A stretch of 56,302 bases of DNA. Origin: Gracilaria vermiculophylla (taxonomy: Eukaryota; Rhodophyta; Florideophyceae; Gracilariales; Gracilariaceae). Numbering within the stretch: the stretch's first letter is position 1; each line of letters starts with the position of its first letter. The notes under the pieces were generated by a model, which was given only the letters and a program-made list of their open reading frames with translations, was not told the DNA's origin and did no database searches. The translations under genes were made by a program, and so were the position numbers. Positions 7,811-54,188 of the stretch are shown one piece after another. Location of the stretch: the NCBI GenBank assembly GCA_019155205.2, contig JAHNZQ020003147.1, positions 1,937,152 through 1,993,453 of the forward strand. The letters are read 5' to 3'.

Positions 7811-8009
7811 GGTGGTCGAAGAGAACTGGGTAGAGTAGTCTGTCTTATCGAGCCCTCAGTTGAAGAAATGATTTCTGCAACTACTCATATTTCAGCAAAC
7901 AAAGCCTCTCACTGATCCAACATTTCCGTAATTGTTATCACACGTGTCGTAAGTATTGCAGAAATACTCAAAACCCATTGCCGAATTTTCTCTGCGTAAA
8001 CTCTCTATT

Positions 8010-9289: not shown

Positions 9290-9842
9290 TGTCTTACAGT
9301 GGCTCCTAACGAAATATGGTGGTGTGGCTTTATGGCGTGATATTCCTAAGGAGGCCTCCTACTTTATTAGCTCGGCCATGTGGTGCATAACTCCGCCTGC
9401 GTGCGCTACAGTATACTTAAAGGACGGTAAAATTATTATTTATTTTATTTAATATATGCAGGTACTTTTTACAGTAGTGAGACCTGCCGAGGCACGCTCC
9501 CGGCTTGATACTTAATCTGCCAGTTGAGCTCCACCTCTGGGGAAGTAAACCAAGCACCCTTGAGTCTTCATCTACTTTTCCGGTTGGAGACTCTTGTCGA
9601 TCATTCTCAGGTTTCTAAACCGCCGATCCCCCGGTCGCATCATAGCAGCGCCTGTAGGAGCACTGTCCGCCCAGTGAACCTCCCGCTCCGCTTGGTGTTT
9701 GCAGATCCCCTTTAAGAATTCCCCTGGCTCGCGAGAGCGGATACCGGAGACCACCATAGGGAACACGCACCTTTGGAGTCAACAAAAACTCCTAACGGAC
9801 GTTGTGCTCTACTACCTCGAAAGGAGGGCTGAAAGTACTACA
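9290..9842 (+). repeat. gypsy copy 1, 5' LTR
   Basis: 553 bases, TGTCTTACAGTGG at the left and AGTACTACA at the right. It matches 21188-21739, 23231-23782 (inverted), 30637-31071 (inverted) and 46938-47494 (inverted). The CCACGTGG box conserved in most copies reads CCATGTGG here. Confidence 0.85.
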
Positions 9843-12168
9843 ACTCGTCTCCCGACTTAGAAGATCACAGTTCCTAAAGGATTGGCAAAAGTCGCAACAG
9901 AACCGAGTTTCTGGTTGGCAACGACTGACCCCGCGCCTTACGGATTGGGTCTCACAAGAGCTAGTCGAAAGGATACCTGCAGATGTTGAAGCCCACTTTG
10001 GAGTGCGCCGCCACACCTTTGTGGAGGAAATCGCAACGGAGAGCGCTGACCGTGCTGCGGATGCTTTGCTGGATTCCGATCCCTTCCTAGAGGTTATCTC
10101 GGATGTTATCCGTGCGGAGGTTTGTTCCCAAACCGCGCAGCTGCTCCCTGCAGCTGCGTTTTATAATTATTCTTCCGTACAAAAGAGGTTTCCCCTATCA
10201 ACACCTGAGGTGAATCCGGGCTGAGAAGGACAGGATACTGCCATCCCCTACGCCAGAGAAGGAAATGATACTGCCGTAGGGAAACGGGACCACCTCAGGA
10301 ATCTTGCTATGCACCGTCTGGATCTGACGCCCCGCGGAGGAGGACAGGATACCGGTCGCGAAAGAATTCACCCAAGGAAAGAAGGACAGGATACTCCTCA
10401 GGTGGATCGCGATAACGGGGGTATCATCAGTAACCCAGACCACCTTAAGGAAAGACGCCGAAAGAAACGGAGGGAGAAAAGAAGAAAGCGAGACACCGAT
10501 TCAAAGAGAAGCTCAGACTCCGAATCCGTGAACAGCTCCAGCTCGAAGGACAGTATATCTCCCAAAGAGAAGAGCAGAAGGGTCAGGAAGGTCGTCCCGC
10601 TTAACGACCTCTTCGCCAAAGTGGTGGATTATGACACCTACAGGTTGAATGATCGCTGCACACTCTACGACGCGTCGGTCGCTAAACGACTCACGAAGAT
10701 GCAGCGCCGTATGGATATTCAAATGAAGAAGCACTCCTTCCCAGGCGAAGACCCCATCTCGGTGTTGATTTTTCTTATGCGCTTCCGTTCAGCGTGTAAC
10801 ACCAATGGTGTCCATGAAGATGCCGCCGTATGGTGCTTTCAGTTCTACCTCACAGGCCAAGCGCACTCGCTGGTGCAGCCACGCCTCATGGGGAAGAGCA
10901 CCATTGTGGATGATCCTGGAACGGAGATCTTGACGACGTACCCGAAGGTGGTCAATTTCCTCCTTAAAAGGTACGCCACTGACAAGGTGATAGCCGATGC
11001 TGATGCTGAAGTCACCTCCTATACGCAGGACATGGGGATGGTCGAGACGAAGTTCTCGCAGAAGCTGTGGACGAAGGCCCTACGGTGTGGGAACGTGTAC
11101 TCCAAAAGGCGGTTGAAGTCGTTGTTTGTCTCGGGACTTTTTCTTTCGATCCCTGCAAGGGTGCGCAATCACTTGAAAATGCACGCAAAGGCCACCTATA
11201 TGGAGCTAGCAAGTTTCACGAAATCCTATGGCGATACACACCGTGCCGCTTGTCGCAGCCATACTCCACTTTCGGACAAACCGGCGGCCTCAAGGACCCA
11301 TCGGGCATCCGCCCTGACGTTGGACTCCAGCACCTTGGAGGAGGTCAAAGAACTCACGCTCGTACGAGAGCAAGAGGCCGTTGCCTTCACATACGCCTCA
11401 TCTCAGGGACCGCCGTCTAGGATGAGGACACCCTCGTCCCCTATTTCGTGCGCCTCGGCAGGATCTTATAGGAGTGTCCAATTTGCGAACCCTCGAGGCT
11501 ACCCACCGCCTTGCAGGATTTGCTTGTCTCGAGAGCCAGTACACTGTACGACTCACACCCCGGCAATGAGGGCCGCCATCCTGCAGGAACGGGAGAAAAA
11601 CTTCCAGGAACTGAAGGACACACAAACCGAGAGCGGAAGTTATCCAACCGCATATCGCGACATCCGCTCCCCTCAAGGAAAAAATGGTTACCGTGCTCCA
11701 CTGGGAGTGCAGCCTGTCTCACTGACACTTGTACCCGCAACGGAGGTGCTGGTATCTAGACCGGTTGCACCTCAAGGGAACACGTCTCATCTCGATGCAC
11801 AACCGCAGAAGCCGTCCGCGACTGGAACTCTGCCTCTCTCCAACCAGGAAAACCCTCAGCGCCACGCGTGGAGGCTCCGCGTGGCTTTTTACCATCGAGC
11901 CTCAGCTCCACGGAGGTCCCCTTTAGGGAAGGGGGAGAAGCCATCTGCTCCGTCGATGCAAAATCGGCGGGCCCCCCGATCCCGTTGGACCCATTTCACA
12001 TCTTTGAGGATTCGGTTTGCACGCTCTGCCGTGAGAATGACAAGGTATTCGCCTCAAAAGGGTGTTACACGCGCGTCACCATCATGTTGCGCGCTATCCT
12101 CGATACTGGAGCTGCCCCCAATCTGGTGCACATCGACGGGCTCCCGCGGGTTGCTCTCTGCTGTTTGA
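9843..12168 (+). pseudogene. gypsy gag (copy 1)
   Basis: One reading frame runs from the 5' LTR to 12168, broken by a TGA at 10222-10224. The first part, to 10221, is helical. Then come four G-Q/N-D-T repeats (10228-10400), a Lys/Arg-rich and Ser-rich stretch (about 10440-10590), and a retrotransposon gag core at about 10690-11240 (S-V-L-I-F-L-M-R-F, then F-L-L-K-R-Y-A-T-D and W-T-K-A-L-R-C). A Cys-poor C-terminal part (C-R-I-C-L-S-R) replaces a standard CCHC knuckle. Gag forms the particle that packages element RNA. No convincing start codon lies between the LTR end and 10222; the ATG at 9802 is inside the LTR. It overlaps pol, which is in the -1 frame. Confidence 0.7.
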
Positions 12169-13976
12169 GAACTGGCAAGCTTCCTACTGTGCGCGATGCA
12201 TCGCGTCGAGCATTAAACATCCTCGGCGCAATATCCCTATACCTCCGGTTGGGCTCCTTACAGGTGAAGGTGTGGTTTCTCGTGGCAACCAACTTGGCCG
12301 CACAATGCATATTGGGCATTTCTATTGTGGATCGGTATGTACGTGCAATTTACCCACGCCTGCGGAAGGTGACGTTTTTCGACGCTGTCCCTGTAGGTAT
12401 CGTGTCCGCATCTCCAGGACCGGACGCCAACGTGCGTCACGTGGGTAATCTTTCAAAAGAGACGCAGTCGAATAAGCTCCGGGTGGTTAAGAGCATAGAA
12501 ATACCAACGAGGAGTCAGGCCGAAGTTTGGTTGCAGACCTCTGCATCTGGCCTTTCATTCCTACAGGGGAGTCCCCACCTGACGACGAAACAGCACTCCA
12601 TGATGGCGAGCGGTGTTATGTAAATAATACCAAACATTCCTTTCAGGGTTGTGCTCGCCAACCTGAAGGAGTCGCCGTTACGACTCCAGAAAGGAACTGT
12701 TGTCAGACTGGCACTACCCGCCCCATCAGTACTGGCTCATCTTCCTTGTGCGGAAGACCTTGCGGACCGCAATGCAATCGCCACCATGGAGGCTGAAGCA
12801 ACTACAACGGCTCCGGAGGAAGAGAATCTTGCCACCTGCCAGGAGAAGCTCCAAACTGTCGAGGATTTTGAAGGGTATCGCCATAGGATAGTGGAGATGC
12901 TATCCGCCTTTGAGGACATGTGGTCTGGTCGCCCGGATCAGGTCAGCCTGGCCAAGCACAGGATCCAGCTCACACCGGATGCGAAATCGGTATATCAACT
13001 CCCGTGGAGGGCCGGACCCCATGCGCGCGATTTCGAACGCGATGAGGTACACTGGATGCTGAAGAAGGGCGTTATCGAGCCTTCTAATTCCAAATGGGCC
13101 TCCCTTGTGGTGCTTGTCAGGAAAAATGATGACTCCTCAAGGTTTTGTATTGACCAACGATGCCTAAACGAGGTCACGGTACGCCATACGTACCCGATAC
13201 CCCGTATGGATGAATGTATCGAGTTCTTAGGCGATGCGCCCGTCTTCTCCACAACGGATGCCAACAGCGACTACTGGCAGATTGAGATGGACGACTCCGA
13301 TAAGGATAAGACAACGTTCACCTCGCACTGTGAGATCTTCACATTCCTAAGGATGCCATTTGGATTGAAGAACGAACCCGCTACGTTCCAACGAGCGGTG
13401 GACATTATTCTGTCAAAGGTTAAGTGGCAGTACGCCTTGGTGTATATCGATGACGTCATCATATACTCCCGCAGCGTGGAGGAGCACTTCATTCATGTGA
13501 AGCACGTGCTCCAACTCCTAAAGGATGCTGGCCTCACCTTAAAGCTGGAGCAATGTTTCTGTTTCAAGTCGTCAGTGGACTACCTGGGGCACATTGTGCT
13601 CCCGGGCCTCCTACAGGTTTCCAGAAAAACTCAGGACGCCAACAAGAAAGCTCACCCTACCACAAACCAGACGGAGCTCCGCTCCTTCCTTGGGTTGTGT
13701 AACGTCTTCCGTAGGTTTGTACCGAACTTTTCCCGTATAGCGGCGCCGTTAAATCACCTCTTGGAGAAGCACAAGCCGACGCAATTGGCTATCTTAACGT
13801 ACGAGGAGTTCGAAGCCTTCGACACCTTGAAGAGGAGACTAATAGAACCACCAATCTTGGTACTTCCGAAGCGGCACGGCCGAATGGTGCTGGACACTGA
13901 CGCCTATAAATACCAGGTCGGATGTGCCCTCCTACAGGAGCAACCAGAAGGTGGAATTCAACCCATCGGGTATTGA
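11868..13976 (+). pseudogene. gypsy protease and reverse transcriptase (copy 1)
   Basis: One frame (-1 relative to gag) carries an aspartic protease with active site L-D-T-G-A-A (about 12096-12113), a linker, then RT. RT motifs: S-R-F-C-I-D (palm), F-G-L-K-N-E-P-A-T-F-Q, the catalytic Y-I-D-D-V-I-I-Y-S (about 13440-13466), the L-G-H-I-V motif and F-R-R-F-V-P-N-F-S of the connection, then the start of RNase H (D-T-D-A-Y). There are stops at 12621-12623 (TAA, where copy 2 reads on) and 13974-13976 (TGA, where copy 2 has Trp). RT makes cDNA from element RNA. Ty3/gypsy order (RT before integrase) is clear. Confidence 0.9.
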
Positions 13977-14394
13977 AGTCACAGCCTCACCCCCACGGAA
14001 CGGAATTATTACACCTCGGAGCGCGAGTGTCTCGCCATCCATCGTGTGGGCGGTTTTGCTTTTACGCTCACACCTGGAAGGCACGTTCTTCACCTGGAGG
14101 ACGGACAACGCACCACTGAAGTGGATACTGTCCTTGACGGATGCTTCCGGTCGCCTGGAAAGGTGGAGGTTACGCCTCCTGGAGTTCGAGTTTGACATCG
14201 TCCACCGCCTTGGCATTAAACACCAGGCAGCGGACGCGCTCTCGCGAATCTCCACGGGCGGGGAAGATGAAACAACTTTAGAGGACACCATCCGTGTCTG
14301 GTTATCCAGGACGCCGACGGGAGAGAAAGATCCAATGGAGAATGTTTGGAGTGCTGTGAACCTGGAGAAAAGAATAGTAGACTCCCTGAGGTGA
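13860..14394 (+). pseudogene. gypsy RNase H (copy 1)
   Basis: RNase H of the Ty3 type continues from RT: L-D-T-D-A (first Asp), E-R-E-C-L-A-I, W-R-T-D-N-A-P-L-K-W, and I-K-H-Q-A-A-D-A-L-S-R at the end. A frameshift near 14035-14045 moves the reading from the RT frame to the +1 frame. The frame then stops at TGA 14392-14394 after I-V-D-S-L-R. Copy 2 stops after the same residues (51958-51960), so this boundary is shared between copies. Confidence 0.85.
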
Positions 14395-16004
14395 TGGTTC
14401 TTGTTGCAGTGGAGAAAGAAGTTCTCTTCATCACTGTGGCGCAGTTCCTGAAGGAACAGAGTACGGATGCGTGCTGCAAGGAGTGCCTCGCCACTGTGGG
14501 GAGTTTGACATCGTCATTTGACGTCGACCGAGACGGCGTGCTTGTACGCCGCGCCCCCGTGGATGGAGCTCTCCAAAAGGTGGTGCCGACGAAGCTACGG
14601 GCGAGAGTGTTGTACCTCTCGCATTACCCTCGCCTCACCGGGCACCCCAGTGGATCTCGGATGTATTTCACCATGCGGAGGGAGTTCTATTAGCCAAAAA
14701 CGGCTAATGACGGCTTCCAAACGGTGGCGGATTGCTATTCCTGCGCCGCCGCTAGGGGGAGTATACGGAAACACCGGACGCCGCTCACGCTGTTCCCACC
14801 TTCAGGACAGTTCGAGTTTGTGTCCATGGACATCTAGGGTCCTCTCCCCAAGACGGAGCTAGGGCATTGATTTATCCTCGTGATCACGGATTGTTTTTCT
14901 AAGATCACGGGTGAAATTTCCCTCCAGAGTACCCCTGCAGCAGTGATTGCCGACGCTTTCCTAGAGCATTGGGTTTACCCCTACATGATACCATCGTACC
15001 TCCTCACGGATAATGGCCCCCAGCTCCCGGCAAAACTCTTCAGCGCCGTCTCCGGAATGCTGGTGATGAAACATTTGTTTACAACTGCCTATCACCCCCA
15101 GACAAACGGACAGGCGGAAATGTTCAACAAACCCATCGCTTCAAGGCTGAAGAACTACTTCGCGGACCACCAGAAGGATTGGGACGCATATGTAGGACCC
15201 CTCACGTATGCATACAATCTACAGGGGCATCGCTCCACGGGGACCGCTCCTTTCAACTTGGTGCTCTGGCGCATACCGCGAAGTGCCGTCATTGCGGCAC
15301 GCGCCACGGCGCACCCGGCGGATGGGCCACAGTCGCCAACAGCGGCGCAAGCCAAATGCTCCATCCTAAAACGATATGCGAACGCACTCTCCCTCGCGAA
15401 GGAGAGACTCAACGCCTCTCAGAGGAGATACAAACAGGACTTCGACAGAAAGGTCATGGAAGGCCCAAACCTGAAGGAAGGCGACGATGGTTTCTTCGAC
15501 AAACCCGAGGAAACCTCCGATGAACCGCCGGACGTCACGCGCAAGTTATCGCCGACCACCTACAAAGTCCTGGCCACCTATAGGGATACTGTCACCATTG
15601 AGGTGAACGGGCTCAGGGACGTCGTCTCCTGTGATATGGTGACAAGAGTCCCAGCGCCCAGCCTCTCAAGAATGCCTGTCACCCGACCTCAAGGACAAGG
15701 CGCGGAGATTCCTCATCCGACCACCTCAGGCGCGACGACACCACGGGATACTGGGAACCATACCACCGCTCTCGGTGAACCATTACTGGAGGCTCCCGAT
15801 GCCATCCTGACCCCTAGCGGTGACATCCTCCACGCGGTGGACCATATCGTCTCCCATAGACAAACCCCTGCAGGAATACTGTACCGCGTCCGCTGGTATA
15901 GGTACACCTCGAAGGCCGACACGGAAGAACCTCCGGAACATATCCCGGAGAACTTCCTTTGGCGACACCATGCCAGTCTAGTGCGGAAACGGCTCTCCAC
16001 ATAG
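14346..16004 (+). pseudogene. gypsy integrase with C-terminal chromodomain (copy 1)
   Basis: The integrase H2C2 zinc domain reads S-H-Y-P..G-H-P..C-Y-S-C (about 14615-14742). The catalytic core has Asp in S-M-D-I, Asp in L-T-D-N-G-P-Q and Glu in N-G-Q-A-E-M-F-N (the DDE triad). The last 60 residues form a chromodomain: A-V-D-H-I-V-S-H-R, Y-R-V-R-W-Y-R-Y and P-E-H-I-P-E-N-F-L, ending at TAG 16002-16004. This defines a chromovirus; such domains can steer integration to marked chromatin. Stops at 14691-14693, 14835-14837 and 14868-14870 interrupt the zinc/core part, while 14880-16004 is open. The frame before 14346 differs from that of RNase H. Confidence 0.9.
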
Positions 16005-16013
16005 GCCCCTCCG

Positions 16014-16027
16014 TTTAGGAAAGGGGG
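16014..16027 (+). promoter_or_regulatory. internal polypurine-tract-like site after pol
   Basis: TTTAGGAAAGGGGG, ten bases after the pol stop codon, is identical to the polypurine tract at 19399-19412 next to the 3' LTR. Copy 2 has a related tract at the same place (near 50312-50336, minus). A close relative, TTTAGGGAAGGGGG, is at 11922-11935 in pol. A tract like this can prime plus-strand DNA synthesis; a second-primer role is inferred. Confidence 0.55.
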
Positions 16028-16230
16028 AGGGGGCCCCCGATCGGATGATTTTTCGCCTCTGGATTCTATCCCCTACCTGGAGTTCTCCTGTTCGCCTCCA
16101 GGATGCATTTGTTCGCTTTCCGCATGCTACCACGGCGGCACTTCATGTCTTTGTGCGAGCGGGTACGGCCTATGCATATTGAGACTACCGTTCGTGGAGC
16201 TTCTGCTCCATCAGAAGGATCTTCTATTGG

Positions 16231-18127
16231 TCAGGGTCCTATCACCCATAGGTCACCCGATCGCGTTGAATGCTCCGCTTCGAGGCGCGCTTTCGCTGTG
16301 AGCGCTTGTCTATCGAAGAACTCCGACAGGCTTTCCTTGAGGGCCGCCATCGAGGCTCGGTTTGTCCGGGCCTTGTGGAACTCTAAGACCCTAGGACGTG
16401 CCTCGCGCAAAGCCTCTACAAGAGAAGCCGGAGCAGGACGGACCGTCACCAGGCACGCCTGCACCAACTCCTGGAAGGCTGCCTCCAGAGCCCCAAAGGA
16501 GACTCCTCCCGACGGTGCACCCGACGCGGCCACCTCCGTTGACGGCGCAACAACCGCTCCGGAAGCAGCCGCGGACGGCGGACAAGCTGGGACAGGGGCT
16601 CCCCGAGGGGATCCCGCGGGTTCCGCAGTGGAGGACAGCAATGCCAAGGACGGAATCGGTGACACCTGAGGTGACGGCAGTGTGGGAACTGGATCGTTCC
16701 ACAGGCGAGGCCGAAGAAAAGTTGCAGGGACGCTCCGCAATCAGTGTTGCACCACTGGGGTAGAAGGAGCCGGGACGCGTGTAATCTCGTCCTCTTCTAT
16801 AGGGGACGCGGCTACCACTGCGGGAGCACTCGGCACTGCGGCGGGCCGCGGAGTTATCACCTCAAGATGTGCGCCCATATCCTGGGACGGAACCAGTAAC
16901 CGACGGGGCGCATCATACGCCAGGCTCACCATCAAGGAGTTGTAGTCGCGTACTCGAAGCCATGGCACCTGAGGAATCCGAGATGGCACCAGATGCGGAA
17001 AAACAGGGTATGCTCGACCTTCATCTTTTTCATCCGGACTCCTAACAATGGGGTGGAACTTTTCCTCGCCGTAGTCGTACCAGAGAAAACCGGGCGTGTC
17101 ATTCCATACCACCTGAAGGTTGTAATCCATCAGCGTCTCCGCCTCTGACTCACTCCACGCGGCGCCCTTAACCAGGTTTCGGATGCGAAAGGAGCGCAGG
17201 ACCTGTATGATGGACACCGACAAGGGAAGCAAACGCCCGGCGGTCGGCTGATATGACGAGTCCCAGTAGAGGGGGCCGTCGCGGCATCGGGCATAGGAGG
17301 GAACGCCTTCGTCCGCCGCTTGGAGGTACGCCATTATGGTGCCTACCACAAACTCCGTCGAGGCGACCAGCATGACAAACCGCCCTAGGGAGTCATGGGG
17401 ATCTTGGACCTCAAAGGGATGATACGCGAAAGTTGTGGGCGTCGCCACGCCGAGATGCGAGGAAACCCGGTGGTCCCTCCAGGAGTCGTTCACCTTAAGG
17501 TAGTACTTTGGACGTTTCCTGGAGGGCATATCATTAAATTCCGTGTTGTGCCACCCATAGAAGTACCCAAAAGCGGTGCGTACGCAAGTTTCGTCCGCAA
17601 AGTGCATCCCCCATCGATTCCGATTGAGCCAATACAGGCGATCGTATGGGGGATTGAAGGGCAACACCGCAAGGGCAGAGCGCCCATCGGCAATGCTTCC
17701 GGTTCGCCCCGCTCTCTGGTGCGAGCTCTCCTTGTAGAGCAGTAACTGTAGTCGCGCCTGGATCTCTCGTTCCTCAGTGCACCTCAGGTATGGAGTGTCG
17801 CAGTGTCCCACCGTGGTTGGAGCGTTGTAACCGTGTACCGGAGTATGAAGCCAGAGGGCGCAATATGCATCGACGCTGTTCCGCTTCTGGTCGTTACACA
17901 CAATCTGCGGGACGGCGCGGAATCGCATTGCCTGAAGGTACGGACAGAAGTGGTGAATGTAATCCTCCACGAGACATGGGAAACTCAGGCGCCTGTCGTG
18001 GAATGGGACAAACACTCGGATGGCGCGATGATGGAAATGTTCTCCTGGACTGAACGGTGCACCGGTTGAGGTGTGATACACCTCAGGATTTGAAGGAGAT
18101 GGTAGGCGCCGGAGTTGGAGAAGACAT
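16231..18127 (-). pseudogene. antisense gene of the gypsy element, about 631 codons, unknown product
   Basis: A long minus-strand gene placed tail to tail with pol (gap 226 bases). Start ATG at 18127 (MSSPTPAP), chosen because copy 2 has the same ATG (48214) at the same distance from a TATA-like box. Lesions: one extra base near 18098, and a TGA at 16741-16743 where copy 2 has a sense codon. Otherwise the frame is open for 1.9 kb. The protein has an N-terminal domain of about 430 residues rich in Tyr, Trp, His and Arg (blocks E-D-Y-I-H-H-F, H-C-D-T-P-Y-L-R, N-R-N-R-W-G, R-P-K-Y-Y-L-K-V, G-R-L-L-P-L-S), then a Pro/Ala/Ser-rich linker, then a helical end (A-A-F-Q-E-L-V-Q-A to A-R-L-E-A). No signal peptide, clear membrane segment or known catalytic motif is seen. 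I do not recognise the family. Presence in both copies shows it is part of the element. Confidence 0.75.
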
Positions 18128-18218
18128 TCCGAAGGTGTAAGAAGCCGGGTGGATGGCGACCGAACGTGTGGTAGCACATGAGGAGAGAGATTTGTCACCA
18201 CTCGGGAAACGATCCGAA

Positions 18219-18226
18219 GTTATATG
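18219..18226 (-). promoter_or_regulatory. TATA-like box of the antisense gene (copy 1)
   Basis: CATATAAC on the minus strand, 92 bases before the ATG at 18127. Copy 2 has TATATAAC at 48115-48122, also 92 bases before its ATG. Conserved sequence and spacing suggest that the antisense gene has its own promoter within the element. Confidence 0.5.
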
Positions 18227-18227
18227 C

Positions 18228-19398
18228 ACCACCGCGGAGGGAGCCGCGTCAATCCGCCATCGTGGAATTCGAGGCGAAGCCGGGCAACTGGAATCAGGCG
18301 GGTTATGGAGCACCATCGCGGGGCGCGCGCTCATATCCAACGGAGAACGATGGGGGTGCGGAAAGGAGAATTATGAGTCTGGCACCTTCACGGAAATTGA
18401 ATGAGCGGACGCGAGAGAGCAGGTGTTGCCAAAAGAAGTAGCCTCAAAGAAGTCGGAGTGGCGAGCGCCTCCAGGGGGTCGGTATCCCCTCGGGACTGAC
18501 CCACGCTCCGTCCACGGAAGTGCGCGCGTGCACCACGCACGGTACGCCGGAAGACGCAGACACCCGCGTTGTCGACTGGCGCAGCAGCACCAACGGGTAT
18601 TGGAGGTCAGAGGGGCAAGGGAAGGTTGGAGGGATATTAAGAATGTTCGCCAGCTCTGGCTTGGATTTACTTGGAGGTGCCTCGACCAAGACTTATATAG
18701 TGGCTCAGTCGCACCGACTAGGTTGCATTAAAAATTACACTACAAAGGCGAGACACTCAATACTACCAATCATATTGTAACATGACATAAATGTACTAGC
18801 CACAATTCAATAATGCTTACAACAGCAAGGCAAAACAAGGCATGACAGTTCCGTACACTCACGAGACCATGACAATGCACAAATTCACTCAACCACCTTA
18901 CACTCTCTGTATTCCGCCATCACTCGTGTCCATACAGCAATGTGTGTGTATAGTTACCATTACGAGGCACATTACACTAGACCATATCTGGTGTACATTA
19001 AGCTTAGTATGCAATGTGTACACCTGGAAACCATATGGTAGTGAACAACGTGCCGGATAGCACAGCTGCACACGTGTACTACACAAAGTCAACACTAAAC
19101 ACAGCCCATGGTCCCCGGAACATTTAGTTGTCAGTGACAGCACAGCCACCTTATCCAACAACGGGTGACACCAGGAAGGAGCAGACGCAGCCGGGTTAAG
19201 AAGGAGCAGAGCCCACAAACGCCGTAACGGATGAAACGCGAGCCCGCGGCAATACGCCGCGTAGGAGTATGGAGAAAAGGAAGGAACGCCTGAAGGAGAG
19301 AACGAGCAAACCGCCGGAGGCCGCACTTGCCTCAAAACCGATAGGAGCCACCCTGGGGATCTAGAAAGCGGAAGATGCACCTCGAGGACGTGGTGCAA
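18228..19398. other. upstream region of the antisense gene
   Basis: Between the antisense TATA-like box and the terminal polypurine tract lie about 610 bases of element DNA (plus a 563-base solo LTR at 18598-19160). The same sequence is present in copy 2 at about 47520-48110. No gene is seen in it. It would hold the upstream control region of the antisense gene. Confidence 0.6.
18598..19160 (-). mobile_element. copia-Y solo LTR
   Basis: 563 bases, minus orientation, starting TGTTGG (19160 downward) and ending CCAATA, flanked by perfect 5-base duplications ACGGG (18593-18597 and 19161-19165). It matches the copia-Y 5' LTR at 54189-54751, which is also 563 bases. It contains a TATA box (CTATATAAG, minus, about 18692-18700). 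Gypsy copy 2 lacks the insertion at the matching place and aligns there without gaps, so the empty site is visible. Confidence 0.93.
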
Positions 19399-19412
19399 TT
19401 TAGGAAAGGGGG
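19399..19412 (+). promoter_or_regulatory. gypsy copy 1 terminal polypurine tract
   Basis: TTTAGGAAAGGGGG followed by TA. After removal of the pogo element this abuts the 3' LTR at 21188. Copy 2 has AAAGAGAGAGAG then TA at the same place. The tract primes plus-strand DNA synthesis. Confidence 0.7.
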
Positions 19413-19599
19413 TACAGTGGGGTACACGCAGTAGTGACACTATGTGCCAAAGGCGTTTGACAGGCACTAATGCGAGTTGGGCAATATTCAAAACAACAAA
19501 TATAACCCTCTCGTTCACCGGGTGACCTTCACCCTAATAACTCAGTAATGAGCAATTGACGTTTATCCTTTGACGTCTGACTCCGTTTTGCTCGTAGCA

Positions 19600-21030
19600 G
19601 AGCTTTTTCGGCTCTTTTCAAGTAGAAAACAGCATCAAAAACTGCACTGTTCACTGCAACCTCTTCAATGCCTTGAAAAAGCAACTATATGTCATGCTCA
19701 CAAGGCAACGGTACAACAATCCCATCGTCCTCATCACTATCCGCAACCTCCACCTCTTTCTCTCCATGCTCTTCCATCACATCAAGAATGTCGAGCGCAT
19801 CCTCGACACTAGCCTCACGCACGTCATAATCCTCTTCAATATTTACCCATTTCTCACCATCACTAGCCTCCATACTTTCAAAAACCTGCTCTTTAAAAAG
19901 ATCGGTAGCTGTAACATGAATTGATAACGTGTGTATCGCTTCAATCATTTCCGTTACAGTGCTCTTATTCTCATGTCTGTTAGACATCTTTCCTTCTACA
20001 GACTTAATATCTGCTTCACAAAGCACTAGCAAAGCCTTTGCCTTTCGCCAACATCTTGCAATCGCAGTAGAACTCACTTCTTCCCAGCTCGTATGAACGA
20101 GATGGCACACATCCAGCATATGTGGGTCAAATCCATCCTCTAAGCCTCGCATTCCTCTCTTCGCTATTGATGCGTTTTGCCGAGCCTTCCTTGTTTCAAC
20201 ATCTTCAACGATTTTGCGCAAAAGGAGTGCACGATACCTCCGTTTAAATGCCGCGATAACTCCCATGTCCATCGGTTAATGAAGTGATGTGCAGTTCGGA
20301 GGGAGGGTGAGTATCTGTACTTGCCCTCTTATGTCCGCCAAATCAGCAGCATGTGGGCCGCAATTATCCATGAGGAGGACACATGGGCGAGATGTAAACT
20401 TTCGTACAAATGGGAGGATGATGCTAAGAAACCACTTCCGAAACGTTGTAGTATCCGACCATGCGTTCTTTTGACTTAAATAAGGAACTGGAGGTGACCC
20501 CAAGCGGAAGCAACGAGGATTCTCGGCGGTACCGATAATAGCCATTGGGGCTTTTGCAGATCNNNNNNNNNNNNNNNNNNNNNNNNNNNNNNNNNNNNNN
20601 NNNNNNNNNNNNNNNNNNNNNNNNNNNNNNNNNNNNNNNNNNNNNNNNNNNNNNNNNNNNNNCCATAAGTGCTTTCTGCTGGATAACACTTTTGGTGACT
20701 GGTAATTTTGCAGATCTGGCAACCTGCAAAAACTTGAGAACATTCTTCTCTATTGCCTCAAATGGTGGTGAGCGTATAGTTTTGGAATGTACAGATCATG
20801 GATTATTTTGTTCATGCTGGAGAAGATGATCTGTGGCGCGTTTAATGTTGGTAACAGTGCGTCGGGATATGTAGAACTGACGCATAACGGTTGATGCATT
20901 ACATCCTGTTGAAAGCATTCGAGCAATTTAAATTTGCTGACCGATGGTGAGTCTGGTTCTCTTTTTGATGGGCTGAGATGATGACTATATCATTGCGGCT
21001 GCTGCCTTTTGTCGAGGAGAGTGGATGGCG
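19600..21030 (-). pseudogene. pogo/Tigger-type transposase (copy 2)
   Basis: Minus-strand frames read an N-terminal helix-turn-helix region (T-I-G-Q-Q-I, S-R-R-T-V-T-N-I-K, P-P-F-E-A-I-E-K-N), then a gap, then the DDE domain: M-A-I-I-G-T-A-E-N-P-R-C-F, L-L-M-D-N-C-G-P-H (second Asp present), L-P-P-N-C-T-S-L-H and M-D-M-G-V-I-A-A (third Asp). A C-terminal acidic tail follows (19685-20272 is open). Several stops and a frame change near 20275 break it. It binds and cuts pogo-family ends in intact relatives. Confidence 0.85.
20563..20662. other. scaffold gap, 100 N
   Basis: Exactly 100 N inside the pogo copy 2 transposase. Alignment with copy 1 implies a true missing length near 390 bases, so the gap size is a placeholder. 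Confidence 0.95.
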
Positions 21031-21187
21031 CCGCTTGGAGATTTTCAGATCGTTTCGCGGTCGTATTTGCCCTGTTTGTGAGCAGTGCTCTTACATCTCC
21101 CGCCAAGGTGTGCCGCGTTAGCAAGGGTGGCACTATTTAGAGGACGGCACTGCTCAAAGTGGCACTATTGCGAGGCCCCCCGCTGTA

Positions 21188-21739
21188 TGTAGTACAGTGG
21201 CTCCTAAGGAAATAGGGTGGTTTGGCCTTATGGTATAATACTCCTAAGGAGGGCTCGTGTTTTATTAGCTGGGCCACGTGGTGCATAAGCCCGCCCACGT
21301 GCGCTACAGTATCCTTGAGGAACGGTAGAAGTATTATTTATTTTACTTCATTTATGCAGGTAATTAGTACAGTAGGGAGACCTGCCCAGGCGGGCTCCCG
21401 GCTTGATACTTAATCTGCCGGTTGAGCTCCACCTTTGGGGAAGTAAATACAAGCACCCTTGAGTCTTCATCTACTTTTCCGGTGGAGTCTCTTGTCGATC
21501 TACGCAGGTTTCTAAGCCGCCGATCCCCAGGTCGCATCACAGCAGCGCCTGTAGGAGCATTGTCCGCCCAGTGAACCTCCCCCTTTGCTTGGTGTTTGCG
21601 GATCCCCTTTAAGAATTCCCCCGGCTCGCGACAGTGGATACCGGAGACAAACGTTAGGAATATGCGGCTTTGGAGTCAACAAAAACTCCTAACGGACGTT
21701 GTGCTTTACTACCTCGAGAGGAGGGCTGACAGTACCATA
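21188..21739 (+). repeat. gypsy copy 1, 3' LTR
   Basis: 552 bases, TGTAGTACAGTGG to CAGTACCATA. It starts directly after the TA of the pogo insertion; without pogo it would follow the polypurine tract. It contains a CCACGTGG box at 21274-21281. It differs from the 5' LTR at many positions, which fits an old insertion. Confidence 0.85.
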
Positions 21740-23782: not shown

Positions 23783-23894
23783 AAATCAATACGTTTACTT
23801 TGATGCTGTTATAATCTGAAAGGTCTTCAAAAATGACCCGCTTTTTTAAGTGAAATGTAAATGGCAGTATAAAACTTCAGTATCTTATGAAAAC

Positions 23895-24421: not shown

Positions 24422-24426
24422 AAAAC

Positions 24427-40073: not shown

Positions 40074-40124
40074 CATACTAGATGGTTCAGCAGACGGTAG
40101 TAAACGGCCTTTTAGCCTCTCTCT

Positions 40125-46937: not shown

Positions 46938-47494
46938 TGGGTAGTACTGTCAGCCCTCCTCTCGAGGTAGTAAAGCATAACGTCCGTTAGGAGTTTTTGT
47001 TGACTCCAAAGGTGCGTGTTCCTAAACGTGGTTTCTGGTATCCGATGTCGTGAGCCGGGGAAGTTCTTAAAGGGGATCCGCAAACACCAGGCGGAGGGGG
47101 AGGTTCACTGGGCAGACAATGCTCTTACAGGCGCTGCTATGATGCGACCTGGAGATCGGCGGCTTAGAAACCTGAGGATGATCGACAAGAGCCTCCAACC
47201 AGAAAAGTAGGTGAAGACTCAACGGTGCTTGTCTTTACTTCCCCAGAGGTGGAGCTCAACCGGCAGATTAAGTATCAAGCCGGGAGCCCGCCTCGGCAGA
47301 CCCTACTACAGTTGTAATTACCTGCGTAAATTAACTAGAATAAATAATAATTCTACCGTCCCTTAGGGATACCGTAGCGCACGCGGGCAGAATTATGCAC
47401 CACGTGGCTCAGTTAATAAAAAACGAGCCGTCCTTAGAAATATTAAACAATAAGGCCACGCCACCGTTTTTCCCTTAGGATCCACTGTACTACA
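46938..47494 (-). repeat. gypsy copy 2, 3' LTR
   Basis: 557 bases, minus orientation, TGTAGTACAGTGG start at 47494 and GTACTACCCA end at 46938. CCACGTGG box at 47400-47407. Preceded on the minus strand by AAAGAGAGAGAG-TA (47495-47508), the polypurine tract. Confidence 0.88.
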
Positions 47495-48114
47495 TACTCT
47501 CTCTCTTTACTTGTACCACGTCCCCGACGTGCATCTTCCGATTTATTGATCCCCGGGGTGGCTCCTATCGGTGTTGAGGCAAGCGGGGCCTCCAGCCATT
47601 GGTGCATTCTCTCCTTCAGGCGTTCCTCCATTCCTTCATACTCTTGCGTGGCGTATTGCCGCGGGCTCGCCTTTCATGCCTTGCGGTGTTTTCCGGCCTT
47701 GCTCCTCCTTGCCTCGGCTGCGTCTCCTCCTTATCGGCGTCTCCGGTCTGTGCAACCGCGCCAGTTGACGGTGTGAGCTTCCGCCCACTCGAGTTCCTCG
47801 TGCGCGGTGCAGTCACGCAACGTCCGTGGCCGGAGCGTGTGTCAGTCCATACTGGCCAATGACTCCCTTGAGGCGCTTGCCACTCCGATTCCTTCGAGGA
47901 TTCTCCTTCGCAAAACAACCACTTCATCGCGTCCGTTCATTCATTCTCCTTAAAGCTGCAAGTCTCATAATCCTCTCGTCTGCGTCCCCGTCGACCTTCA
48001 CAGCATATGAACGTAAACCTCGCTATCGTGCTCCTTACCTCCCCTGATTCCTGTTGCCCGGCTTCTCCTCGAATTACATGATGGAATCTTGACGCAGCTC
48101 CCTCCTAGGTGGTG

Positions 48115-48122
48115 TATATAAC
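48115..48122 (+). promoter_or_regulatory. TATA box of the antisense gene (copy 2)
   Basis: TATATAAC, 92 bases before the ATG at 48214; the spacing equals that in copy 1 (18219-18226 to 18127). Confidence 0.55.
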
Positions 48123-48213
48123 CTTGGATCATTCCCCAAGTGGTGTCACATCTCTCTGCTCAGGTGATACCACGCGTTTGGTCGCCATCCATCCGGCTTC
48201 CTACACCTTTGGC

Positions 48214-50095
48214 ATGTCTTCTCCGACTTCGGCGCCTACATTTCCTTCGAATCCTGAGGTATACCACACCTCGATCGGTGCACCGTTCCATCCAGGAGAG
48301 CATTTCGATCATCGCGCCACGCGGGTCTTCGTCCCATTCCACGGCCGGTGCATAATCCTACCGTGCTCTGTGGAGGATTACATTCACCAATTCGGCCCAT
48401 ACCTTCAGGCGATGCGATTTTGCGCCATACAGGAGGTTGCGTGGAACGAACAGAAGCGAAACTGGGTGGATACCTATCGTGCTCACTGGCTCTATACTCT
48501 GGTGCACGATGACAACGCTCCAACCACGGTGAAACACTGCGACACTCCATATCTGAGGTGACCTTAGGAACGAGAGATCCAGGCGCGATTCCAGGTACTG
48601 CTCCACAGGAAGCGCTCGCACCACAGACCGGGGCGACCCGGAAGCATTGTCGATGGGCGTTCTGCCCTCGCGGTGTTGCCCTTCGTTCCCCCATACCATG
48701 GCCTCCACTGGCTCAATCGAAATCGATTGGGGACGCACCTTGCGGACGAGATTCGTGTACGAACCGCTTTCGGGTACTTCTATGGTTGACACATCACGAA
48801 ATTCCATGGCATGACTTCCAGGCAGCGTCCGAAGTACTACCTCAAGGTGAAAGACTTCTGGAGGGACCACTGGGTATCCCCGCACCTCTGCGTGGTGACG
48901 CGCATGACCTTCGCGTATCACACCGCCGAGGTTCTGGATCCCCGTGACTCCCTAGGGCTGTTTTTCATGTTAGTCTCCTCGACGGAGCTCGTGGTCGGCC
49001 CCATGATCGTTTATCTCCAAGCACCGGACGAAGGCGTAACCTCCTATACTCGATGCCGCTACGGCAGTCTCTACTGGTGCTCGTCGTATCAGCCGACCGT
49101 CGGACGTTTGCTACCCTTGTCGGCGTCCATTATCTGGGTCCTGCGCTTCTTTGGCATCCAAAACCTTGTTAAGGGCACCGCATGGAGTGAGTCCGAGGCA
49201 GAGGCGCTGTTGGGTTAAAACCTTTATGTGGCGTGGAATGACACGCCGGGCTTCCGTTGGTACGACTACGCCGAGGACAAGTTCCACCCCATTGTGAGGA
49301 GTTCTAATGGAGACGATGACGGGCGAGCGTACCCTGCCTTTCTTCGTCTGGCGCTTTGTCGGGTTCCTCAGGTGCCACGGCTCCAAGTACCCGACTACGA
49401 CCCCTTGATGGAGAGCCTGGCGCATCATACGTCCCGTCGGTTACCGGCTCCATTCCAAGATATGGGCGCGCCTCCTGAGGTGATAACTTTGCGGCCCGCC
49501 GCAGTTCCAAGTGCTCCCGCGGTAGTAGCCGCCGTGTCTCCTATGGAAGAGGACGAGACTGCTCCCTTCCAGATACCTTCGCTCCCAGTGGTGCAACCCC
49601 GCCTGCGAAGCGTTCCAGTTCGTGTTCTTCAGCCTCGCCTGCGGAGCGTTCCAGTTCCCGTACCGCCTTCAACTCCAGTGTCACGGACTCCGCCTTTGGC
49701 TTTGCCGATCTGCACTGCAGAACCCGGGGAATCCCTTCGGGGATCCCCTGTCTCAGCTGGTCCGCCGTTCGCAGCTCCTTCCGTAGCGGTTGTTGCGTCG
49801 TCAACGGAGGTGGTCGCATCGGTTGCACCGTCCGGAGGAGTCTCCTCTGGGGCTCTTGAGGCTGCCTTCCAGGAGTTGGTACAGGCGTGCCTGGTGACGG
49901 GCCGTCTTGCTCCGGTTTCTCCTGTAGAGGCTCTGGGCTGTGCGTGCTTGGGTCTTAGAGCTCCACAAGGCCCGGACAGACAAAGTTTCGATGGCGGCCA
50001 TCAAGGAAAGCCTGTCGGAGTTCTTCAAAAGCCAAGTGTTCACAGAAAAAGCGCGCCTTGAAGCGGATTATTCAACGCGATTTGGTGACCTGTAG
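48214..50095 (+). pseudogene. antisense gene of gypsy copy 2, unknown product
   Basis: Same gene as 16231-18127 in copy 1. It stays in one frame from the ATG at 48214 to about 49930. Stops: TGA 48559-48561, TAG 48565-48567, TGA 48787-48789 (Trp in copy 1) and TAA 49216-49218. A frameshift near 49930 and a TAG at 50093-50095 affect the end. Residues are conserved by eye at roughly three of four positions in the N-terminal domain (N-P-E-V-Y-H-T-S, E-D-Y-I-H, H-C-D-T-P-Y-L-R, S-Y-Q-P-T). The Pro-rich linker is longer than in copy 1 and holds a duplicated Q-P-R-L-R-S-V-P-V unit. The helical C-terminal region (A-A-F-Q-E-L-V-Q-A-C-L-V-T) is strongly kept. It ends tail to tail with pol (50338). Confidence 0.75.
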
Positions 50096-50337
50096 GTGAT
50101 AGAGCCCTGGCGAATAAAAGATCCTTCGGATGGAGGAGAAGCTCCATGAACAGAAATTCCAATATGAATAGGTCGTGCCCGCGTGCTCAGGAACACGAAG
50201 TACCGCCGCGAGAGCATGTGAAAAGTGAGCAACGGCATCATAGAGTCGAACAAGAGAACCCCAGGTGGGGCATAGACTGCGAAGACGAAAAACAACTCCG
50301 GTTGGGGGCCCCCTTCCCGTTTCCTAAACAGAAGCGT

Positions 50338-53300
50338 CTATTTGGGGAGGCGTTTCCGCACCAGATTGGCGTGGTATCGCCTAAAGAAGTTCTCCGGGAT
50401 ATGTTCCGGAGGTTTTTCCGTGTCGGTCTTCGCGGTGTACCCATACCAGCGGACGCGGTACAGTATTCCTGCAGGGGTTTGTCGATGGGAGACGATAGGG
50501 TCGACCGCATAGCGTTTGTCACCTTCGGGGATCAGGATGGTGTCGGGAGCCTCCAGTAATGGTTCACCGAGAGTGGTGATGCGGTTCCCAGTACCCCGTG
50601 GTGTCGTCGCGCCTGAGTTGGTCGGATGAGGACGTTCCATGCGTTGGCCCTGGGGTGGGATGGCGGGCATTCCTGAGAGGCCGGGCATCGGGACTTTAGT
50701 CACCCTATCACGGGAGACGAAGTCTTTGAGCCCGTTCACCTCAATGGCGACAGTATCCCTATAGGTGGCCAGGACTTTGTAGGGCCCTGAAGGGGTCGGC
50801 GCTAACTTGCGCGTGACATCCGGTGGTTCGTCGGATGTTGTTCCGGGTTTGTCGAGAAAAACCTCGTTGCCTTCCCTCAGGTGAGGGCCTTTCATCACCT
50901 ACCGGTTGAATTCCTGTTTGTATCTCCTCTGCGAGGCGTTGAGTATCTCCTTTTGCGAGGGAGAGTGCGTTCTCATACCGCCTTAGAATGGATCGCATGG
51001 CTTGCGCCGCTGTTGGCGGCTGAGGCCCATCCACCGGGTGCGCCGTGGCGCGAACCGCAATGACAGCACTTGGCGGGATGCTCGAGAACACCAGATTGAA
51101 AGGAGCGGTCCGTGTGGACTAGTGCACCTGCAGGTTGTATGCATACGTGAGGGAGCCCACAATTGCGTCCCAACACTTCTGGTGGTCTGCGACGTAGTGC
51201 TTCAGCATCGAGGTGGTGGTCATGGTGAACACCTCTGCCTGTCCGTGGGTCTGGGGCTGATCCGCAGTTGTAAACAACTGTTTCATCCCCAGCATTCCGG
51301 AGACGGCGCTGAAGAGCTTCGCCACGAACTGGTGGCCATTGTCCGTGAGGAGATGCAATGGTCCCCCGTAGGGGTGCACCCAATGCTTCAGAAAGACGTC
51401 GGCAATCACTGCTGCAGTGGGGCTCTAGAGTTGGACGGCACGCGTGATTTTCGAGAAGCGATTCGTGTTCACGGGTATAAATCGGTGCCCTCGCTTCGTC
51501 TTGTGGAGAGGGCCTAAAATGTCCATGAAAACAAACTCCAACGGTCCTGAAGGTGGGGACAGCGTGAGCAGCTTCCGGTGTTTCCGTATATTACCCCTAC
51601 CGGCGGTGCAGGAATAGCAATCCGCCACCGTTTGGAAGGCGTCATTAGACATGTTCGGCCAACAGAACTCCCTCCGCATGGTAAAATACATCCAAGATCC
51701 ACCGGGGTGCCCGGGAAGGCGAGGATAGTGCGAGAGATACAGCACCCGCGCCCGTAGCTTCATCGGGACCACCTTTTGAAGAGCTCCGTCCAGAGGGGCG
51801 CGGCATACAAGCACGCTGTCTCGGTGATCGTCGAATGACGATTTCAAACTCCCCACAGTGGCGAGGCACTCCTTGCAGTACGCATCCATACTCTGTTCCT
51901 AAAGGAACTCCACTACGGTGATAAAGAGAACTTAATTCTTCTCCTCAACAAGAGCCATCACCTCAGAGAGTCCACTATACCTGCCTCCAGTTTCACACCA
52001 TTCCAAAAATTCTCCATCGGATCCTTCTTTCCCGTCGCGTCTTGGATGACCAGACACGGGATATTGTCCCCAAAAGGCGTTTTGTCTTCCCCCTCGGTGG
52101 AGATTCGCAAGAGCGCGTCCGCTGCCTGGTGTTTAATGCCAGGGCAGTGGAAGATGTCAAACTTGAACTCAAGGAGGCGTAACCTCCACCTTTCCAGGTG
52201 ACCGGAGGCATCCGTCAAAGACAGTATCCACTTCAGTAGGGCGTGGTCTGTCCTCAAGGTGAAAAGCGCGCCTTTGAGGTACGGGCATAAAAGCCAAACC
52301 GGCCACACGATGGCAAGACATTCGCGCTCCGAGGTGTAGTAGTTCCGTTCCGAAGGTGTGAGACTGCGACTCCAATATCCGATGGGTTGAAGTCCACCTT
52401 CCGTTTATTCCTGGAGAAGGGCACATCAGAACTGGTATTTACAGGCGTCAGTGTCCAGCACCATTCGGCCGTGCCGCCTCGGAAGTACCAAGATCGGCGG
52501 TTATACTAGTCTCCTCTGCAAGGTAAAAAAGGCTTCAAACTCCTCGTCCGTCAATGTAGCCAATTGCGTCGGCTTGTCATTCTCCCAAATACGATTTAAC
52601 GGCGCCGCTATATGGAAGAAATTCGGTACAGACCTTCGGAAGACGTTATACAACCCTAGGAAGGAGCGGAGCTCCGTCTGGTCTGTGGGAGGGCGAGCTT
52701 CCTTGATGGCATCCTGAAATTTCCTGGTCACCGGTAGGCGGCCCGGGAGCACAACGTGCCCCGGGTAATCCACCGAGGACTTGAAAAAGAAACATTTCTC
52801 CAGCTTCAGGGTACGTCTAGCGTCTTTTAGGAGTTTAATCATGTGCTTTACATGAATGAAGTGCGCCTCCACGCTGCGGAAGTTTATGATGACATCATCA
52901 TCAATATACACCATAGCGTACTGCCACTTCACCTTTGAAAAGATTATGTCCACCACTCGTTGGAACGAAGCGGGTGCATTCTTCAATCCAAATGGCATCC
53001 TAACGGAATTTAAAGATCCCACAGTGCGAGGTGAACGTTGTCTAATCCTTACCGAAGTCTTCCATCTCAATCTTCCAGTAGCCGCTGTAGGATTCCAACG
53101 TGAAGAGGACGGACGCATCGCCTAAGGAGTCGACACATTCATCCATACGGGGTATCGGGTAGTAATCACGTACCGTCACCTCGTTGAGGCGTCTGCAGTC
53201 AATACAGAACCTTAATGAGACATCATTCTTCTTGAAAAACACCGTTGGGGAGGGCCATTCGTAAATAGAAGGCTCGATAACGCCCTTCTCCAACATCCGG

Positions 53301-54187
53301 TGGACCTCATCGCGTTCAAAATTGCGCGCATGGGGTCCGGAACTCCTCGAGAGTTGATGTACCGGTTTGGCATCGGGTGTGAGCTGGATCATGTGCTTGG
53401 CCAGGCTGAACTGACCCAGGTGCCCAGACCACATATCCTCAAACACGGACAGCATCTTCACTACCCTATGGCGATAACCTTCGAAATCCTCGCCAATTTG
53501 GAGCTTCTCCTGGCACGTGGCAAGATTCTCTTCCTCTGGAGCCGTTGAAGTCGCTTCAGCCTCCATGGTGGCGATTGCATTGCAGCCCGCAAGGTCTTTC
53601 ACACAAGGAAGATGAACCAGTCCTGCAGGGGCTGGTAGTTCCAGTCCGACAACAGTTCCTTTCTGGAGTCGTAACGGCGACTCCTTCAGGTTGGCGAACA
53701 CAACCCTGAAACGAATGTTCGGTATTATTTCCGTAATACCGTTCGCCATCATGGAGTGCTGTTTTGTTGTCAGGTGGGGACTCTCCTGTAGGAATGAAAG
53801 GCCAGATGCGGAGGTCTGCACCCAAACGTCGGCCTGACTCCTCGCGGGTATTTCGATGCTCTTCACCACTCGGAGCTTGTTCGAGTGCGTCTTCTTTGGA
53901 AGAGTACCCACGTGACGTGCGTTGGCGTCTGATCGTGGAGATGCAGAAACGATACCTACAGGGGCGGCATCGTGAAACGTCACCTTCCACAGGCGTGGGT
54001 AAATTGCACGTACATACCGGTCTACAAAGGAAGTGCCCAATATGCATTGTGCGGCCAAGTTGGTTGCCACGAAGAACCACATTTTCATCTGTGAGGAACC
54101 CAACCGGAGGTATACAAGTATCGCTCTGAGGATGGTTAGTGCTCGACGGAACGCATCGTGCACTGTAGGGGGCTTGCCAGTCCTCAA
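50338..54187 (-). pseudogene. gypsy pol, copy 2
   Basis: Segments on the minus strand: protease C-terminal part to RT palm (54187-53042, open), RT (53118-52501; Y-I-D-D with one extra codon region, F-G-L-K-N-A-P-A-S-F-Q), RNase H (52426-51958; W-S/R-T-D-H-A-L-L-K-W, I-K-H-Q-A-A-D), stop after I-V-D-S-L-R at 51958-51960, integrase zinc domain and first catalytic Asp (51889-51425; F-M-D-I-L-G-P-L), core (51409-51119; L-T-D-N-G-H-Q, H-G-Q-A-E), linker, and chromodomain (to 50338; A-V-D-P-I-V-S-H-R, Y-R-V-R-W-Y-G-Y). Several frameshifts. Where copy 1 has stops (12621, 13974, 14691, 14835), copy 2 has sense codons, so those are lesions of copy 1 alone. Confidence 0.9.
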
Positions 54188-54188
54188 G

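What the first reader, a model, noticed from the sequence alone, without database searches (positions are those of the whole stretch)
16231..18127. Chromovirus carrying a long unknown gene on the antisense strand
Seen: two separate gypsy copies (plus strand 9290-21739, minus strand 46938-54188) both have a gene of about 630 codons between pol and the 3' LTR, on the opposite strand to gag-pol. The frame is kept for about 1.9 kb in each copy with only a few lesions, and most lesions differ between copies. Known: a few plant Ty3/gypsy lineages (for example Grande, Ogre, Retand types) carry antisense frames, but the protein seen here has no motif I recognise. Inference: the gene was under selection when the element was active and encodes a product with a large N-terminal domain, Pro-rich linker and helical tail.
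Basis: partly seen in the sequence, partly recalled or inferred. Interest (0 to 1): 0.9.

Follow-up and report, generated by a model that had tools for sequence, protein, structure and literature searches.

The report
Antisense accessory gene in algal retrotransposon
A common chromodomain Ty3/gypsy retrotransposon in what looks like a red alga carries a real, selectively preserved ~696-codon gene on its opposite strand with no recognised relatives, and a sister lineage that lost most of this gene has nevertheless spread, which suggests the protein works as a shared helper factor.

Summary
Both window copies carry the antisense frame (copy 1 ~18334-16243, copy 2 ~48007-50097). At least 87 copies score in the genome. 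In the 42 analysed, the ~450-codon core has median pairwise dN/dS 0.275 and codon-model omega 0.42, against 0.60 for the integrase C-terminus. Stops are 4.2 per 1000 codons against 30-32 in that strand's other frames, and codon bias ends at the gene's stop. All 34 gene matches with a listed RT within 12 kb lie tail to tail with it. The protein has no significant Pfam, PDB or protein-database match and no TRP28 domain. The host is probably a red alga.

New: 36 places span one ~1.2-kb deletion of the gene's core; 22 were read; 7 sit by RT at the right spacing, 2 with unbroken RT. They look recombined with full-length copies. I infer a trans-acting accessory protein from an antisense transcript; expression and role are untested.

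Antisense genes here are known in plant Retand/Grande and fungal Boty; the protein, host lineage and deletion lineage look new.

The parts
9295..9838 (+). 5' LTR of copy 1 (~545 bp)
   Evidence: 87.9% identical over 545 nt to the 3' LTR; 40 LTR places scored of 1816 first-look candidates genome-wide
10225..12168 (+). open frame between 5' LTR and RT of copy 1, taken as gag by position
   Evidence: 647-aa stop-to-stop frame, no Pfam match at E up to 0.1; gag by position only
12624..14394 (+). reverse transcriptase and RNase H of copy 1
   Evidence: PF00078 E=9.6e-25, PF17919 E=2.3e-11, PF17917 E=3.9e-8
14271..16004 (+). integrase with C-terminal chromodomain, copy 1
   Evidence: PF17921 weak (E=0.0019, below cut-off), rve weak and Chromo E=1.1e-4 (both below cut-off); Chromo above cut-off in copies L002 and L006
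16243..18334 (-). antisense accessory gene, copy 1 (~696 codons in other copies; broken here by a frame shift near the 5' end and one in-frame stop; the usual end stop is lost)
   Evidence: selection tests
18335..18598 (.). spacer between antisense gene and 3' LTR, first part
   Evidence: aligns to copy L024
18599..19155 (.). insertion inside the spacer of copy 1; a related stretch abuts the broken end of copy 2 (54189-54751, 92% complementary)
19156..19414 (.). spacer, second part, with the purine-rich stretch next to the 3' LTR
   Evidence: aligns to copy L024
19415..21184 (-). second insertion in copy 1, holding remains of a DDE_1 (Tc5/Tigger-like) transposase
   Evidence: PF03184 E=2.3e-7 for 19685-20275; interrupts the alignment to L024
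21185..21737 (+). 3' LTR of copy 1
46941..47489 (-). 3' LTR of copy 2
48007..50097 (+). antisense accessory gene, copy 2 (4 in-frame stops in the core and a frame change near the C-terminus)
50297..54188 (-). pol of copy 2 (broken), cut off at its 5' end next to an insertion
   Evidence: PF17921 E=8e-10 for 51425-51898

Best explanation
The feature is a genuine accessory gene of an abundant chromodomain Ty3/gypsy element in a probable red alga, encoded on the strand opposite gag-pol, tail to tail with pol. Shown: its ~450-codon core is under purifying selection, stronger by the same model than that on the integrase C-terminus, and an old lineage with most of the gene deleted has amplified. Inferred: the protein is translated from an antisense transcript starting in the 3' LTR or just inside it, acts in trans on the whole element population (most likely as a regulator or particle/nuclear-entry factor), and is therefore exploited as a public good by the deletion lineage.
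For: 87 scored copies out of 986 first-look candidates. Core omega 0.275 as the median of 861 pairs among 42 copies, against 1.2 and 1.4 in the other two frames of the same strand; 4.2 against 30.2 and 32.1 stops per 1000 codons. Codon model with free omega beats omega = 1 by 248 lnL units for the core and 20 for the C-terminal part; its omegas are 0.42 (core), 0.69 (C-terminal part) and, for 30 copies, 0.60 (integrase C-terminal region). Position 1/2/3 diversity is about .10/.08/.22 in the first 1050 nt of the core and shows no third-position excess after the stop. All 34 gene matches with a listed RT match within 12 kb are tail to tail with it (35 row pairs, 30 of them 2756-2890 nt apart; one gene match pairs with two pieces of one RT), with 0 in another arrangement. 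An ATG lies at the expected codon in 24 of 42 copies and 3 nt later in 8; TAG at the expected end in 23 of 42. Deletion lineage: 36 of 40 scored matches span the junction, the query's own place included; all 22 read run across the same junction; 7 lie tail to tail with RT at 2626-2861 nt, 2 of those with unbroken RT. Next to the junction the nearest relative of 16 of 17 derivatives is another derivative (mean distance .161 within.204 to full-length); in the second ~300 alignment columns it is a full-length copy for 12 of 17 (.145 and .152). That is what template switching or gene conversion between the two classes would leave.
Against: No transcript or protein data could be examined, so expression and trans-action are inferred. 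The spacer upstream of the ATG is no more conserved than third codon positions (diversity .15-.23), so no promoter could be located. The C-terminal third shows only weak constraint (pairwise omega .56; model .69), and the deletion lineage shows the same ratio there (pN/pS .65 against .62), so mutational bias or recombination could explain that part. The spread of the deletion lineage also fits a gene that is merely dispensable or self-limiting. The 42 copies are the 41 best-scoring of 87 plus window copy 2, which favours preserved frames. With 42 full-length and 17 derivative copies compared, nearest neighbours lean to the full-length class by number alone.
Confidence: 0.6

Rival explanations
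1. The antisense gene encodes a self-limiting (copy-control) or host-protective factor; elements that lose it escape control, which is why a deletion lineage amplified.
For: The deletion lineage amplified to dozens of places, some with RT retained, and its retained tail is as diverse as that of the full-length copies (mean distance .154 against .153).
Against: Full-length copies were not replaced, and the core shows purifying selection across copies, which simple escape would erode.
Confidence: 0.15
2. The gene helps the element but only in its own transcript or particle (cis-preferring); the deletion lineage spread by other means, such as a compensating change elsewhere.
For: The gene keeps a fixed geometry with pol wherever both are listed.
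Against: Dozens of places without the core exist and those read look recombined with full-length copies.
Confidence: 0.1
3. The antisense transcript, not the protein, matters (dsRNA or transcriptional interference); the frame is incidental.
For: Antisense RNAs without coding capacity are known in other retroelements (PMC7264820, section 8 read).
Against: Codon-position bias, low omega and depletion of stops in this frame.
Confidence: 0.04
4. A host gene was captured and is preserved by the host rather than by the element.
For: Origin unknown; no database relatives found.
Against: Every gene match with a listed RT nearby lies in the element's own arrangement (34 of 34), 35 of 40 fetched copies have the LTR at the usual distance, and no preserved host copy stands out from the spread of identities. 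Only the best candidates were scored and 53 of 87 matches have no listed RT partner, so a diverged host copy could be missed.
Confidence: 0.06
5. The frame is a shadow of coding on the gag-pol strand (for example an env-like gene).
For: One gag-pol-strand frame shows omega .36 in the core.
Against: That frame has 40.9 stops per 1000 codons, the highest of the six in the core; it is the mirror in which third positions coincide. The other two gag-pol-strand frames have omega above 1 in the core.
Confidence: 0.01

Closest known systems
aORF-3R genes of plant LTR retrotransposons (Retand ORF4, Grande gene23, RIRE2, PvRetro13)
   Same: Long gene between pol and 3' LTR on the opposite strand, kept in most copies of a family, function unknown (PMC11963269 passages; PMC7264820 passages and sections 5, 7, 8).
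   Different: Retand is described as a non-chromovirus lineage with TRP28 (PF04195) in antisense frames of 97% of clusters. Here the element carries a chromodomain and the protein has no PF04195 match or other significant family match.
Antisense gene brtn of Boty-like elements in Botrytis cinerea
   Same: An additional antisense gene; PMC7264820 (section 5) lists Boty among elements with an antisense frame between pol and 3' LTR, so this is not confined to plants.
   Different: Its sequence could not be compared here; I saw the Zhao 2011 paper only as a title in a reference list and as a citation.
Antisense genes of deltaretroviruses (HTLV family)
   Same: Antisense promoter inside the 3' LTR (PMC7264820 section 8) and antisense proteins (PMC11963269 passages).
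   Different: Analogy only; no sequence relation was tested.
Non-autonomous partners of LTR elements (such as the BARE-2/BARE-1 pair; recalled, no call)
   Same: A deletion derivative co-amplifying with full elements.
   Different: Here the deleted function is the antisense accessory gene; 7 of 36 derivative places have a listed RT at the right spacing, 2 of them unbroken.

Membership tests
Ty3/gypsy LTR retrotransposon | LTRs flanking gag, then RT-RNase H before integrase | tested here: met
   LTR pair 87.9% identical; RVT_1 and RNase H families; integrase zinc domain downstream of RT, E=8e-10 in copy 2 and weak (E=0.0019) in copy 1; gag by position only
Chromovirus | Chromodomain at the C-terminus of integrase | tested here: met
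   PF00385 31.3 bits in L002 and 27.5 bits in L006, cut-off 25.1; window copies 22.4 and 22.1 bits, below cut-off
Chromovirus | RT falls in the chromovirus clade | not tested
   No tree with named reference elements was built; PMC12477816 (passages) says the chromodomain-bearing Gypsy lineages of Ectocarpus are not related to chromoviruses
aORF-3R (antisense accessory gene between pol and 3' LTR) | Position and orientation, in most copies | tested here: met
   34 of 34 gene matches with a listed RT within 12 kb are tail to tail; LTR about 750 nt from the core start in 35 of 40 fetched loci
aORF-3R (antisense accessory gene between pol and 3' LTR) | Constraint on the protein | tested here: met
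   core omega .275 pairwise.42 by codon model; model comparison
Retand TRP28 protein (PF04195) | Transposase_28 domain | tested here: not met
   None of 10 members match PF04195 at E up to 10; genome-wide best E=0.38, below cut-off, and not at any listed copy
Boty brtn | Sequence relation to brtn | not testable with these tools
   Protein sequence not in hand; no relative of the antisense protein among the ~8000 candidates scored in each of two searches of the 5.8-billion-protein set

The most novel reading that the evidence does not exclude
The antisense-strand protein is a diffusible public good for the whole element population: full-length elements supply it, a stable lineage of core-deleted elements that can still carry RT exploits it, and the two classes are co-packaged and recombine during reverse transcription. 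This would be a producer/cheater system built on an antisense gene of an otherwise ordinary chromodomain Ty3/gypsy element.
Probability: 0.3. Interest if true: 0.65.

Novelty: new variant of a known kind. Interest (0 to 1): 0.52.

Why it matters
Antisense genes of LTR retrotransposons have been described in flowering plants and a fungus, with roles still unknown. This case adds a probable red alga, a large orphan protein, direct selection measurements, and a natural 'knock-out' lineage that spread anyway. That last point turns the question of what these genes are for into something testable: is the product needed, shared or self-limiting?

Tried and rejected
Shadow coding from the gag-pol strand was rejected by stops and omega. 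Known-family membership was sought and not found: Pfam for 10 copies at E up to 10 gave only three one-member matches at E 0.057, 0.22 and 2.3, and a piece of copy 2 one at E 0.013, below that family's cut-off; PDB sequences gave two at E 0.49 and 0.59; two searches of the 5.8-billion-protein set, about 8000 candidates scored each, gave none at E 0.01 and E 1; viral contigs gave none with the antisense protein or with two RT queries. A structure model of the core from window sequences alone was worthless (mean pLDDT 28.7), so no fold search was run. A promoter could not be pinned down. Host naming by 18S rRNA did not complete; the phycobilisome linker family served as a taxonomic marker instead. 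A paper search on genome size gave no host name. Reports of antisense genes in red algal retrotransposons: none seen in the listings of searches of this library (most subscription papers are not held; I opened passages or sections of four papers only). The C-terminal tail was first read as selected; the deletion lineage shows the same ratio, so that claim was dropped.

Full report
WHAT IS THERE. The window lies in an unnamed 44.8-Mb genome of 27 contigs. It holds two copies of one Ty3/gypsy element: copy 1 on the plus strand (LTRs 9295-9838 and 21185-21737) and copy 2 on the minus strand (3' LTR 46941-47489, cut off at 54188). RT, RNase H and integrase families match. The chromodomain is above its cut-off in two other copies and just below it in the window copies. 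Between pol and the 3' LTR lies the long frame on the opposite strand. In copy 1 it is interrupted by one in-frame stop and a frame shift near the 5' end, and the spacer between it and the 3' LTR carries two insertions, 18599-19155 and 19415-21184; the second holds transposase remains of the DDE_1 family.

IT IS A GENE. A protein search of the same genome with copy 1's 492-aa piece gave 87 scored matches among 986 first-look candidates, 67-82% identical apart from the query itself. A search with a second copy gave 64 scored of 1107. So 42 of the 87 were analysed: the 41 best-scoring and window copy 2. That is a bias towards preserved frames. The common reading frame is ~696 codons, from an ATG (24 of 42 at the expected codon, 8 a codon later) to a TAG (23 of 42 at the expected place).

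SELECTION. Diversity at codon positions 1/2/3 is about .10/.08/.22 over the first 1050 nt of the core, weaker after that, and without third-position excess just after the stop. Rotating codon-position labels gives z = 13.6 (core), 4.3 (C-terminal part), 3.5 (N-terminal part) and -0.7 (after the stop). Median pairwise omega in the core is 0.275 over 861 non-independent pairs; the other two frames of that strand give 1.2 and 1.4. Stops are 4.2 per 1000 codons against 30.2 and 32.1. A codon model (MG+F3X4, kappa fixed at 1, fixed FastTree topology) with free omega beats omega = 1 by 248 lnL units for the core and 20 for the C-terminal part. Its omegas are 0.42 for the core and 0.69 for the C-terminal part; the same model gives 0.60 for the integrase C-terminal region of 30 copies, so the core is the more constrained of the two. 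The tree is star-like (internal branches 8% of length). From the stop frequency I estimate ~0.04 neutral changes per site per copy since insertion; that accounts for most of the median dN of 0.094 but little of the dS of 0.343, so constraint during the active phase was probably stronger than the raw ratio shows (a rough inference). Only 8 of 42 copies lack core stops, 35 lack core indels, and 6 lack both.

IT BELONGS TO THE ELEMENT. Between the 87 gene matches and 95 RT match rows (94 scored of 1709 candidates) there are 35 row pairs within 12 kb, involving 34 gene matches; one gene match pairs with two pieces of one RT. All are tail to tail, 30 of them 2756-2890 nt apart, and none is in another arrangement. 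The other 53 gene matches have no listed RT partner; both lists are capped. The LTR lies about 750 nt (735-763) beyond the core start in 35 of 40 fetched copies; in the other five it is displaced or not seen.

A LINEAGE WITHOUT THE CORE. Sixty RT match rows had no listed gene partner. I fetched the expected place for the six of these without RT stops. Two hold the gene with frame changes (L053, L054). Three hold it with the core deleted (L050 and L055 alike, L051 differently). One (L052) shows LTR and integrase sequence there instead. A search with L055's junction region gave 40 scored matches of 299 candidates; 36 span the junction, L055's own place included. A second query from L060 gave a similar list. 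I fetched 20 more. All 22 derivatives in hand (these, L050 and L055) run across the same junction: the right side is found in all 22 and the left side by BLAST in 15, the rest by alignment. The two sides overlap by about 8 nt, and the net loss is mostly 1208 or 1209 nt (computed by hand). In 15 of 22 a stop in the frame of the retained tail stands just before the junction. Seven of the 36 lie tail to tail with a listed RT at 2626-2861 nt, two of those with unbroken RT; one more lies on the same strand as an RT match 6.8 kb away. For 17 of 22 derivatives (5 short or interrupted ones dropped) I compared the retained tail with 42 full-length copies. In the first half the nearest relative is another derivative for 16 of 17 (mean distance .161 within.204 to full-length); in the second half it is a full-length copy for 12 of 17 (.145.152). 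Six derivatives share a one-base deletion in the tail with full-length L009. Template switching between co-packaged RNAs, or gene conversion, would do this. The tail's pN/pS is nearly the same in derivatives (.65) and full-length copies (.62), so constraint on the tail itself is not established.

HOST. Eleven matches to the phycobilisome linker family exceed its cut-off: eight on contigs C17, C14, C7 and C11, which carry element copies and so look nuclear, and three on C20, perhaps the plastid. Among the 120 RT relatives listed of 518, the best-scoring with an organism name is from the red alga Agarophyton chilense (48% identity); a bacterial MAG protein (51% over less of the query) and a rotifer are also named further down. 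A red alga is therefore likely; a glaucophyte is not excluded.

HOW IT PROBABLY WORKS. Shown: coding, constraint on the core, geometry, amplified deletion lineage, signs of recombination between classes. Inferred: antisense transcription from the 3' LTR or just inside it, translation to a ~696-aa protein, action in trans. The precise role (regulator, nuclear entry, particle part) is open; a regulator is my first guess by analogy with antisense genes of other retroelements.

KNOWN OR NEW. [quoted passage not shown] The present protein has no significant match to the libraries searched and no TRP28 domain. The listings of my paper searches showed no report from red algae; that library lacks most subscription papers.

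Noticed in passing
5466-7855 and 38668-41006: Two copies of a DDE_Tnp_4 (PIF/Harbinger-like) transposase region with a second, convergent frame beside it; a 300-bp piece is 99% identical between the copies, so movement looks recent. The class name is recalled.
   Followed up: no
29729-30667: Tc5/Tigger-like DDE_1 transposase frame, related by family to the remains nested in copy 1 at 19685-20275.
   Followed up: no
20276-20795 and 42665-43135: Open frames across runs of masked letters; the one at 42665 reads like a Tc1/mariner transposase C-terminal part (motif recalled, no family search run).
   Followed up: no
1-2000: 74% G+C in a window whose other 2-kb steps run from 36% to 59%.
   Followed up: no
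L009-L048 and window copies: Copies differ by 5-33% in substitutions over the gene but by very few indels even in LTR and spacer (about 2 indels per 100 substitutions there; the gene region was chosen by protein score, which disfavours indels).
   Followed up: partly
L035:4498-5631: A deeper-branching copy of the antisense gene's C-terminal half (64% amino-acid identity to L024), so older subfamilies exist.
   Followed up: partly
G000:C17:3115551-3117275: A 915-aa frame with three phycobilisome-linker domains on a 5.2-Mb contig, besides an 881-aa frame with three such domains on C20; such core-membrane linkers are usually plastid genes (recalled).
   Followed up: no
window 23232-25573: Several LTR-like pieces of the same and a diverged family close together.
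   Followed up: no
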